From assembly GCF_002154695.1 (NCBI RefSeq), contig NZ_MTAV01000087.1, forward strand, positions 1 through 36,204: a stretch of DNA of 36,204 bases. The letters are read 5' to 3'. Position 1 is the first letter of the stretch; each line of letters begins with the position of its first letter. The position numbers and the translations under genes were made by a program. The DNA is from Nostoc sp. T09 (GTDB lineage Bacteria; Cyanobacteriota; Cyanobacteriia; Cyanobacteriales; Nostocaceae). Shown piece after piece: positions 21,349 to 28,415 of this stretch. Below the pieces are notes generated by a model, which saw only the letters and a program-made list of their open reading frames with translations, did not search any database and was not told where the DNA came from.

Positions 21349-22335
21349 CTAGTTCTCCATTGCTTGAAGAACTTTGAGATATAAATTTTCTACTCTCTGA
21401 GTTTGCAGTTCACCAAACGAGGCGTAGTTCTGCAAGCCTGGGGACCCATTAACTTCGATAATAATATAGTCTACCATTGGCTTAGTTATATCGTTTGTAA
21501 TAATATCTACACCTACTAATCTTAAGCCCATATCTTTTGTAATATTAATTGCCAATTTTTGAAAATCGGCATGAATACTTTCTGTTAAATCTATTGCCTC
21601 ACCTCCACTTGATAAATTTGCATTGTCCAAAAGATAGATAATGGTATCTTTTGGTACCACACTGTCAAAAGTTAGTTTTTGCCTTTGTAATTTTTTTTTA
21701 ATTCTAAAATCTTCAAAATCTATAATTTTTCTGCCATTTTTATTCAGTAATAATTGCTTTCTCTGCAAAAGTTCCCAAACACTAGATTTACCATCTCCTA
21801 CTACAAATAAGGGAATTCTTTGGTAGGCAATAATTACCTCTTCATCTAGTACCAAAATCCTGTAGTCATTACCAACATGAAAGCGCTCGACAATGAATCC
21901 TGAGGTTATTTGCAAGATTTTTTTAGCTACTTGATAGTATTCTCGCTTATTATGAACCTTGGTAACTAATCTACCTTGGCTAAGATTCAAGGGTTTGACA
22001 ATTACAGGAAATCCTAGAGCTTTAGCATAATCAAAGCCATCATCTATATTTCTTAATGTGCCTATTTTTTTACATAAGTGCTCATTAAAAAATGTTTTGC
22101 CCTCAGGAACTTTATAGCCAAAATGCTTCAGTAAAAAACTAGAGCAACCTTTATCTTTTGCAATCTCCGCTGCACCGAAACCATTTATGTTGAATTGAGT
22201 AGAGCGAAAAACAGTTTTATTACCGTTTTTAAAAGTAATGTGTCCCACAAAATTACATTCTGGATCTACTAATAGTACTGCTCCTATTTGCTCAACTACT
22301 TTTTGAAGTATTGATATTACAAATGGTGTCTTCAT
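21349..22335 (-). CDS. Stand-alone ATP-grasp ligase, cyanophycin-synthetase-like
   Basis: A 328-residue ATP-grasp protein. The ATP-grasp part shows AKALGFPVIVKPLNLSQGR (Lys of the ATP site), FIVERFHVGNDYRILVLDEE, and late metal-binding residues IIIEVNGSPGLQNY. The segments VVGDGKSSVWELL and ANLSSGGEAIDLTESIH resemble the middle domain of cyanophycin synthetase CphA, yet the Mur-ligase-like domain that CphA carries is missing and the N-terminal ~60 residues are short. It could join an amino acid or small acid to a carboxylate by an acyl-phosphate; the substrate is unknown. The gene is more AT-rich than its neighbours and I see no HIP1 octamer in it, which hints at transfer. It is monocistronic on the minus strand. 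Confidence 0.8.
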   Translation of the reverse strand: MKTPFVISILQKVVEQIGAVLLVDPECNFVGHITFKNGNKTVFRSTQFNINGFGAAEIAKDKGCSSFLLKHFGYKVPEGKTFFNEHLCKKIGTLRNIDDGFDYAKALGFPVIVKPLNLSQGRLVTKVHNKREYYQVAKKILQITSGFIVERFHVGNDYRILVLDEEVIIAYQRIPLFVVGDGKSSVWELLQRKQLLLNKNGRKIIDFEDFRIKKKLQRQKLTFDSVVPKDTIIYLLDNANLSSGGEAIDLTESIHADFQKLAINITKDMGLRLVGVDIITNDITKPMVDYIIIEVNGSPGLQNYASFGELQTQRVENLYLKVLQAMEN

Positions 22336-27098: not shown

Positions 27099-27103
27099 CC
27101 TCT
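27099..27103 (-). promoter_or_regulatory. Shine-Dalgarno that fixes the chlL GTG start
   Basis: AGAGG on the minus strand, 9 bases before the GTG at 27089. It decides in favour of the 288-residue form over the longer open frame. Confidence 0.7.
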
Positions 27104-27888
27104 TATAGTTTTTTGTCAAACTTGTGGCTGAAACATTTGCCTTCACCTAGCCTGATATGGCGATGCGTGAGGTCTTGTCGTTGTCATTATTGTCCAAATC
27201 ACAAGGAAAATAAAGGGCCTTTAAATATGAAAAATGGCTATATATGACGATTTAAAATTTATTTAATTAATTTAATGATAAAAATTTCATATAAAACTTT
27301 TTATAAGCAATAAATTAGCATTTTTAAAATTTTAAAATTTATTTTTATAAAAAAAGTTACAAAAAACAAAAAGCTTAAATCTAGTTTTTTCAATACTTTT
27401 GATTCGATTAGACGATACTCATATCCGTATATGAGATTGAATCAACCTCTACGTCAGAGGTGAAGATAGAGATTCACTGTCCTACGGTATAAATCCCAAA
27501 AAACTGATCAATAGCAGGTAAAGTGCCAGTTTTTCCTCAACTGTCAAGAATATCTAATTGCTGTTTTTGAGCAAGTGCTTTTTATATGCAACAAATTATT
27601 AAATTTTTAAATATGGGTTTGACCCGATTAAAAAAAATCAACAATAAAGCAATAGTGCGATCGCTAATTAGCTTCGATAGTTACGTGATTTGATTGGAAT
27701 AGCAGTTATCTGCTAATTGAAACCAAATCTGAGTTAGCCGTGACAGTCAGGATACCTAGTGAGATACTCAGATGATTCAGCTTTACTAGTTCTGACCAAC
27801 TCATAATTTGAGTTAATTTATGTAACAAAATTTCCAAAATTTTGATTATTTTTTGTAGCTCGAAACTATCAACCATCAATCAAATGGT

Positions 27889-27893
27889 AGGAG
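27889..27893 (+). promoter_or_regulatory. Shine-Dalgarno of the GG-leader peptide
   Basis: AGGAG, 8 bases before the ATG at 27902. It rules out the in-frame ATG at 27884 and the TTG at 27842 as starts. Confidence 0.7.
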
Positions 27894-27901
27894 TCAAGAG
27901 C

Positions 27902-28117
27902 ATGAAAAAAGAGCTTAATAGTACTGATATTTCTAATTTACCTCCAGTAGAGGAACTTTCTGATGCAGCTCTCTCTAATATCTCTGGCGGTCGCTATAAA
28001 AAACCCTTGAGCCAAACTAGCACAGTGGGTTTATCGACACCAGACGGCGACCCCGTTGACGTTTATGTTGACGGAGTTCGTGTCAATTCGGTCGAAACTG
28101 GATACTATCCTAAGTAG
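27902..28117 (+). CDS. Double-glycine-leader precursor peptide (bacteriocin/RiPP-like), orphan
   Basis: A 71-residue peptide with the layout of a secreted precursor. The leader is about residues 1-30 and ends EELSDAALSNISGG: Gly29-Gly30 with hydrophobic residues at -4 (Ile27), -7 (Leu24) and -12 (Leu19), the pattern cut by C39-peptidase ABC exporters. The predicted core (31-71) starts RYKK, has no Cys, is rich in Thr, Ser, Asp and Val, and ends GYYPK. No modification enzyme, immunity protein or C39 transporter lies nearby, so export would need a protein encoded elsewhere. It could be a bacteriocin, a signalling peptide or a modified peptide. AGGAG supports the start. It converges on the TIGR02450 gene with only 16 bases between stops. 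Confidence 0.8.
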   Translation: MKKELNSTDISNLPPVEELSDAALSNISGGRYKKPLSQTSTVGLSTPDGDPVDVYVDGVRVNSVETGYYPK

Positions 28118-28133
28118 TACCGCACTCGGTAAA

Positions 28134-28388
28134 TCAGGAAACTTCGTCTTCGAGTTGTACTATTTCCTTTAATGGTTGCCAGTCGGCTTGCCACTGAGAG
28201 TTATCTTGTAATAATTTGGCATTGAGCCAGAAACGAACTTTTGGATCGCAAGCCGCAACCATTTCAGCGTAAACCCAATTACCTTGATTTTTGCGGTTGA
28301 CGACTTGGAAATGCCGCCAACCATCTATCTTGTGCTGCGCTGTCCATTTAGAACCTAGAAGATAAGGAAATTTCTGCTTTTTAGCCAT
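28134..28388 (-). CDS. TIGR02450 family small Trp-rich protein
   Basis: 84 residues, matching the TIGR02450 family of short tryptophan-rich proteins found in cyanobacteria and proteobacteria: SKWTAQHKIDGWRHFQVVNR, then AACDPKVRFWLNAKLLQDNS and a WQADWQPL end. Function is unknown. It is soluble and basic at the N terminus. The ATG lies at the edge of a heptamer-type repeat (ACAACAGACAA just upstream), so no standard Shine-Dalgarno is seen. It is convergent with the GG-leader peptide and downstream of purQ on the same strand, with a palindrome in between. Confidence 0.88.
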   Translation of the reverse strand: MAKKQKFPYLLGSKWTAQHKIDGWRHFQVVNRKNQGNWVYAEMVAACDPKVRFWLNAKLLQDNSQWQADWQPLKEIVQLEDEVS

Positions 28389-28415
28389 TTGTCTGTTGTC
28401 ATTTGTTTATTGTTA
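28389..28415. repeat. Short tandem heptamer-like repeat at a start codon
   Basis: Minus-strand reading AACAAATGACAACAGACAA runs into the ATG at 28388. Same family as the repeats before purQ and cmpC. Confidence 0.6.

What the first reader, a model, noticed from the sequence alone, without database searches (positions are those of the whole stretch)
27902..28117. Orphan double-glycine-leader precursor peptide beside the chlL-chlN cluster
The 71-residue peptide has a textbook GG leader (hydrophobic -4, -7, -12 positions) and a 41-residue Cys-free core ending GYYPK. No processing, modification or immunity gene lies near it, so it must be exported by a distant machine. It could be a bacteriocin, a quorum or developmental signal, or a modified peptide of a type not yet described.
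Basis: partly seen in the sequence, partly recalled or inferred. Interest (0 to 1): 0.7.

Follow-up and report, generated by a model that had tools for sequence, protein, structure and literature searches.

The report
Orphan secreted peptide shared across phyla
A small stand-alone gene in a cyanobacterium encodes a peptide with an export tag, and its mature part is closely kept in soil bacteria of a different phylum, which suggests an exported peptide with a preserved job outside the cell.

Summary
Window 27902-28117(+) encodes a 71-aa peptide with ATG, AGGAG, a Gly-Gly leader and a 41-aa core. The motif alone is weak evidence (0.46 such ORFs per randomised window); homologues settle it. I found 22 members: this one, Nostoc sp. 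106C, a Pleurocapsales strain and 19 betaproteobacteria (three named Paraburkholderia, one MAG, 15 unnamed Burkholderiaceae). Between phyla the core is better kept than the leader. No Pfam or NCBIfam family reaches its cut-off over the window peptide's core. In 20 of 21 carrier genomes searched no C39 exporter lies near the gene; the MAG is unclear. In the window the gene sits in an insert of about 0.4 kb that the same chlL-TIGR02450 gap lacks in all 7 congeners. In betaproteobacteria the orphan shares its leader type and a sigma54-type site (18 of 19) with GG peptides at cNMP-C39 ABC exporter loci (24 of 43; 0.4 expected), and 17 of 18 carriers have a C39 exporter of that length. Most likely it is an orphan cargo of a long-type peptidase exporter, cut after GG and released; a signal or matrix role fits better than a bacteriocin. 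Export is inferred; which of the genome's eight exporters serves it is unresolved.

The parts
27736..28126 (+). insert (about 365-391 bp) absent from the same chlL-TIGR02450 gap of Nostoc sp. 106C, where 32 nt stand instead
   Evidence: blastn of window 27100-28400 against 7 congeners; alignment
27835..27901 (+). upstream stretch similar to that of the Nostoc sp. 106C copy, which lies at another locus; presumed promoter and 5' leader
   Evidence: 68% over 277 columns from 27835 on; 75% over 27835-27991
27889..27893 (+). AGGAG ribosome-binding site
   Evidence: sequence; GGAG in 18 of 18 homologues printed
27902..27991 (+). double-glycine leader, residues 1-30
27992..28114 (+). core peptide, 41 residues, with the cross-phylum block DGDPVDVYVDGVRVNSVETG
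28115..28117 (+). stop codon

Best explanation
An orphan cargo peptide of a peptidase-containing ABC exporter. It is made as a 71-aa precursor; the leader is recognised in trans by a C39 peptidase ABC transporter encoded elsewhere, cut after Gly30, and the 41-residue core is released through HlyD and an outer-membrane channel. The likeliest exporter kind is the long type with an N-terminal cNMP-binding domain, HlyD and a PpiC rotamase, of which this genome has two. Outside the cell the core acts on a target common to distant bacteria, more likely as a signal or a surface/matrix peptide than as a bacteriocin. Shown: the coding gene, the leader, the family, the orphan state, the exporters, the insert. 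Inferred: cleavage, export, which exporter, and function.
For: Leader over the bacteriocin_sig cut-off. GG at the same place in 22 of 22 members, with 8 invariant columns. Core pN below leader pN against betaproteobacterial members in 18 of 19 pairs for the window gene, 18 of 19 for Nostoc 106C and 14 of 19 for the Pleurocapsales one. The own genome has 8 strong C39 matches, two in frames over 1000 aa; both of those have cNMP, C39, transmembrane and ATPase domains with HlyD and PpiC beside them. One Paraburkholderia locus read has the same set plus an outer-membrane efflux protein (L099). 17 of 18 betaproteobacterial carriers searched have a strong C39 in a 1019-1049 aa frame, against 21 of 60 sampled non-carriers (16 of 23 at 7 Mb or more, Fisher p 0.014; not corrected for relatedness). 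TGGCAY-N7-GC stands 69-94 nt before the orphan's ATG in 18 of 19 betaproteobacteria (background 0.026 per 300 nt), and within 30-150 nt upstream of 24 of 43 exporter-linked GG peptides with the same leader type (about 0.4 expected). On the 5.3-kb MAG contig the C-terminal end of an ABC ATPase, 53% like the own genome's long-type exporter and cut by the contig end, lies 4.4 kb from the peptide. Precedent for non-bacteriocin GG peptides in cyanobacteria: EbfG/PteB (PMC4997328, passages).
Against: The sigma54-type link is betaproteobacterial only; the window and the two other cyanobacterial members have no such site, and the motif was fixed after looking at those upstreams, though the test is on other genes. 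Exporter loci of 4 of 5 non-carriers show the same sites before GG peptides, so the regulon does not depend on the orphan. Within cyanobacteria the core is not better kept than the leader: WIN/LEGE 06147 pN 0.38 in both, WIN/Nostoc 106C core 0.40 against leader 0.22. In the window genome the leader is as close to peptides beside short-type exporters (C59 score 37, C71 36) as to a long-type one (C72 36). The MAG carrier had no C39 match at E<=1e-10. No expression, cleavage or export data. Only 3 cyanobacterial carriers were found, so it is no general cyanobacterial function.
Confidence: 0.68

Rival explanations
1. A class II (unmodified) bacteriocin exported in trans.
For: Leader models hit are bacteriocin families: bacteriocin_sig and PF10439 in 8 of 22 members each at E<=0.1.
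Against: No immunity family among the window proteins searched; no ORF cluster shared by more than 5 of 20 homologous loci. The core is kept between phyla, whereas Wang et al. [quoted passage not shown]
Confidence: 0.17
2. A modified peptide (RiPP): Ser/Thr of the core dehydrated by the HopA1/APH pair encoded beside the genome's two long-type exporters, or ligated by an ATP-grasp enzyme.
For: HopA1 (PF17914) and APH kinase genes lie at both long-type exporter loci of the own genome, the enzyme pair of class V lanthipeptides (recalled; class V papers seen in a listing only). GRASP_targ_2 is hit weakly in 6 of 22 members at E<=0.1; an ATP-grasp gene lies 5.6 kb away.
Against: No Cys in this core, so no lanthionine ring. 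tblastn with the HopA1, APH and window ATP-grasp proteins found nothing at E<=1e-3 in 44 loci (20 homologue neighbourhoods, L041 and 23 betaproteobacterial exporter-region loci). The window ATP-grasp is cyanophycin-synthetase-like with three genes between it and the peptide.
Confidence: 0.12
3. Not exported: a small intracellular protein whose GG motif is incidental, or a decaying inserted gene.
For: The motif alone is expected 0.46 times per random window; the gene is absent from the same site in 7 of 7 congeners.
Against: GG kept in 22 of 22 members with a leader type shared with exporter-linked peptides in betaproteobacteria; synonymous change far exceeds amino-acid change.
Confidence: 0.1

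Closest known systems
EbfG1-4 / PteB of Synechococcus elongatus (PMC4997328, passages)
   Same: small cyanobacterial GG-motif proteins whose secretion needs a C39 transporter; role in biofilm development
   Different: by the paper mature EbfG1-4 have no homologues in other cyanobacteria and are one four-gene transcript; this one is a single gene with a cross-phylum core
Cyanobacterial bacteriocin precursors of Wang et al. 2011 (PMC3140520, passages)
   Same: GG precursors; long-type CAP_ED-C39 ABC exporter with HlyD and rotamase (groups I, II, VI)
   Different: precursors were sought within 20 kb of exporter clusters, so orphans like this fell outside; their cores are little conserved
HetC of Nostoc PCC 7120 (PMC10986499, passages)
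   Same: cNMP-C39-ABC exporter kind whose substrate is unknown and may be encoded elsewhere
   Different: this family was found in only 2 of 8 congeners, too rare for a general HetC substrate
TIGR01847 bacteriocin_sig / PF10439 Bacteriocin_IIc
   Same: leader signature
   Different: the window peptide's core reaches no model's cut-off

Membership tests
Double-glycine-leader (C39-processed) precursor peptides | leader ending in GG with hydrophobic -4, -7, -12 | tested here: met
Double-glycine-leader (C39-processed) precursor peptides | C39 peptidase exporter in the same genome | tested here: met
   8 strong matches in G000
Double-glycine-leader (C39-processed) precursor peptides | exporter gene adjacent | tested here: not met
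   no C39 match on the window contig; in 19 other carriers none near the gene, the only one on the same contig being 323 kb off (G797); MAG unclear
Double-glycine-leader (C39-processed) precursor peptides | cleavage after GG and export | not testable with these tools
   needs biochemistry
Class II bacteriocin | immunity gene and killing activity | tested here: inconclusive
   no immunity family seen; activity not testable
Class V lanthipeptide | HopA1-like and kinase-like enzymes beside the precursor, Cys for rings | tested here: not met
   enzymes lie elsewhere in the genome; no Cys in the core
Graspetide precursor TIGR04497 | model score above cut-off | tested here: not met
   13 bits against 32
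HetC substrate | co-occurs with hetC in heterocyst formers | tested here: inconclusive
   family in 2 of 118 relatives and 2 of 8 congeners; hetC itself was not mapped

The most novel reading that the evidence does not exclude
A horizontally travelling one-gene secreted peptide that plugs into resident long-type C39 exporters of cyanobacteria and Burkholderiaceae and keeps its core across phyla because its extracellular receptor or partner is common to both: an inter-phylum peptide signal without its own exporter, receptor or immunity gene.
Probability: 0.2. Interest if true: 0.8.

Novelty: new variant of a known kind. Interest (0 to 1): 0.5.

Why it matters
GG peptides are usually found by looking beside their exporters, and their cores diverge fast. 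A family that is nearly always an orphan, keeps its core across phyla and has a mappable sigma54-type site in one of them points to a part of the secreted peptidome that cluster-based mining misses. It gives the long-type (HetC-like) exporters concrete candidate substrates to test.

Tried and rejected
tblastn of the window peptide in plasmids and phages: no match; of one betaproteobacterial member in plasmids: no match. Viral contigs with A3: 201 pattern matches, none confirmed. PDB profile search: nothing below E 0.8. FliN is hit in 1 of 22 members, 13.6 bits against 84, rejected. Two AlphaFold2 runs gave mean pLDDT 59.6 and 62.8 with short strands in the core; too weak to use, so I made no fold search. 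Naming the exporter by leader similarity failed. A first sigma54 regex, one base off, found nothing in 21 loci and the window; the corrected one is. Repeats at the insert: no direct repeat, one short palindrome. Of the order-wide hits (4 of 388 genomes), G237, G396 and the second G301 hit match only the leader part and were left out of the family. The class-wide search found only the own genome (1 of 388) but scored at most 15 candidates a genome; one search scored at most 14. The species-wide scan needs strict peptide patterns and misses variants such as DPVGVYV, so carriers are undercounted. In one search, 6 of 13 exporter loci gave a wrong longest ORF; their long-type label rests on frame length. 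In one search no peptide was found in L164 and L181, and L165, L166 and L169 had peptides without a site. In a recheck the own long-type exporter hits ABC proteins in 8 of 21 homologue loci; seven are 25-38% matches (one, L093, over 525 residues but with no C39 match on its contig), the eighth is the MAG fragment.

Full report
Observation. The 71-aa ORF is at 27902-28117 on the plus strand with an ATG, AGGAG and a canonical GG leader. The leader scores 16.8 bits on TIGR01847 (cut-off 15.7); over the core only sub-threshold FliN/FliMN_C matches appear. The leader pattern alone is not significant: mean 0.46 such ORFs per randomised window.

Family. Of 118 relatives 2 carry it, counting the own genome; of 388 genomes of the order one further genome bears the core, the other hits being leader-only. 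A pattern-based scan of 84,980 species genomes with a three-row profile confirmed 6 loci: Nostoc sp. 106C, Pleurocapsales LEGE 06147, three Paraburkholderia and one betaproteobacterial MAG. The betaproteobacterial members have a different but still GG-type leader and the same core. A Burkholderiaceae sample gave 16 of 398 genomes, one match each at E<=1e-8; one of them is P. monticola again. Counting each genome once, there are 22 members, the rows of A5; two rows (L091, L092) are identical peptides from two genomes. Invariant columns are L19, G29, G30, D48, G49, V54, G58, V64; near-invariant are D12, K33, L44, P51, Y55, V56, D57, N62, S63, G67. Among 22 members the families hit at E<=0.1 are mostly leader-type (bacteriocin_sig 8, TIGR04149 8, PF10439 8, GRASP_targ_2 6); for members other than the window's I saw no cut-offs or positions.

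Selection. Against the 19 betaproteobacterial members the window gene has mean pS 0.92 and pN 0.54 in the leader, 0.81 and 0.39 in the core; core pN is lower in 18 of 19 pairs (18 of 19 for Nostoc 106C, 14 of 19 for LEGE 06147). Among 18 Burkholderiaceae sequences the ratio of mean pN to mean pS is 0.42 in the core and 0.50 in the leader. Within cyanobacteria this does not hold: WIN/LEGE 06147 pN is 0.38 in both parts, and WIN/Nostoc 106C is 0.40 in the core against 0.22 in the leader. So it is a coding gene under constraint, and the core advantage is a between-phyla result.

Orphan and possibly mobile. The window is a whole contig without a C39 match. In the 20 other carrier genomes searched, no C39 match lies near the gene; the only one on the same contig is 323 kb away in G797, and the MAG has none; the genome of L041 was not held. 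ORFs of 80 aa or more in 20 homologous neighbourhoods, compared all against all, give no cluster found in more than five loci (greedy ORF calls, not a trained gene finder). The MAG is a possible exception: its 5,262-base contig ends inside the C-terminal part of an ABC ATPase 53% like the own genome's long-type exporter, 4.4 kb from the peptide, with a cNMP-binding protein next to the peptide; whether that transporter has a C39 domain cannot be told. In the chlL-TIGR02450 gap, Nostoc sp. 106C matches the window in pieces up to 27735 and again from 28127 (flanks 88 and 94%), with 32 nt between; the six other congeners show no match to the segment either. Nostoc sp. 106C has its own copy elsewhere beside a DUF928 gene, and the DNA likeness begins 67 nt before the ATG. 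Gain at this site is the simpler reading; loss in the congeners is not excluded.

Exporters. The own genome has 11 C39 matches, 8 strong: two in frames over 1000 aa and six in frames of 716-758 aa. The two long ones have cNMP-binding, C39, transmembrane and ATPase domains, with HlyD and PpiC rotamase genes next to them. L099 of Paraburkholderia sp. C35 has an outer-membrane efflux protein, FHA protein, HlyD, PpiC and a cNMP-C39 ABC protein in a row behind a GG peptide. Of 18 betaproteobacterial carriers searched, 17 have a strong C39 in a frame of 1019-1049 aa; of 60 non-carriers sampled, 21 have one over 1000 aa (20 of 32 at 6 Mb or more, 16 of 23 at 7 Mb or more). The size-matched contrast is modest and not corrected for relatedness.

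Regulation. Upstream of the betaproteobacterial orphans lies TGGCAY-N7-GC, starting 69-94 nt before the ATG, in 18 of 19; the last has AGGCAC-N7-GC at 71. The background in the same loci, these sites included, is 0.026 per 300 nt (0.14 for the looser form). It has the -24/-12 GG-N10-GC form of RpoN sites (recalled); a P. phymatum study used GGCACG-N4-TTGC (PMC5979394, passages). With the motif fixed, GG peptides at exporter loci of 17 carriers and 5 non-carriers have it 30-150 nt upstream in 24 of 43 (19 of 34 in carriers, 5 of 9 in non-carriers) where about 0.4 are expected, mostly before the first gene of a row (three of its 23 loci, L098-L100, had already been looked at with this motif). 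The leaders are of one type (M-x-x-L-x-I-x-D-L ... L-D-x-x-x-M-x-x-[IV]-x-G-G); the peptide search required it, while one search had found such leaders independently with the A3 profile. So in these bacteria the orphan appears to belong to the regulon and leader class of the long-type exporter. Related genomes are not independent, and I saw no transcript data. The cyanobacterial members lack the site, as expected if cyanobacteria have no sigma54 (recalled).

Mechanism. In-trans export with C39 cleavage is the best account. The function is open. Core conservation across phyla, no recognised immunity gene and single copies speak for a signal or surface role; EbfG/PteB shows that GG peptides of cyanobacteria can serve biofilm formation (PMC4997328, passages). 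HetC, the same exporter kind, has no known substrate, and its authors leave open that it is encoded elsewhere (PMC10986499, passages); this family is too rare to be its general substrate.

In print. Searches of the held library for double-glycine with Paraburkholderia (0 papers), for three of Burkholderia, double-glycine, peptidase C39 and cyclic nucleotide-binding (1 paper, an Azoarcus study, passages read, not about this), for three of sigma54, Burkholderia, bacteriocin and double-glycine (45 papers, 8 listed, none about this by title and start of abstract), and on cyanobacterial GG proteins showed no description of the family. The library lacks most subscription papers, so this is weak evidence of novelty.

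Noticed in passing
L024 16951-19266 and L025 14901-17217 (own genome, contigs C229 and C72): Both long-type C39 exporter loci carry a HopA1-like gene and an APH-type kinase gene side by side, the enzyme pair of class V lanthipeptides (recalled), with GG peptides beside the C72 one.
   Followed up: partly
L098-L100, L162, L163, L167, L177, L180 (Burkholderiaceae): Exporter loci with several GG peptides and sigma54-type sites before the first one. In L099 also a Ser/Thr kinase, an FHA protein and a caspase/sulfatase-modifying-factor-like protein; the other loci were hardly annotated.
   Followed up: partly
L095 918-1553 and 5050-5259 (betaproteobacterial MAG): cNMP-binding protein beside the peptide and the cut C-terminal end of an ABC ATPase like the long-type exporter at the contig end.
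   Followed up: partly
window 21349-22335 (-): Stand-alone ATP-grasp protein resembling part of cyanophycin synthetase.
   Followed up: no
L102 9222-9500 (Nostoc sp. 106C): GG peptide with a Cys-rich tail beside a LanM-type protein (DUF4135 + LANC_like) and a short-type C39 exporter; its core begins MMKEPL, like MMKSPL of the orphan in the same genome.
   Followed up: no
L032 719-1734 (own genome, contig C104): Three tandem GG peptides with near-identical leaders and similar cores near a contig end.
   Followed up: no
L024 5124-5516: A HetP-like protein (recalled; no Pfam match) upstream of a long-type exporter.
   Followed up: no
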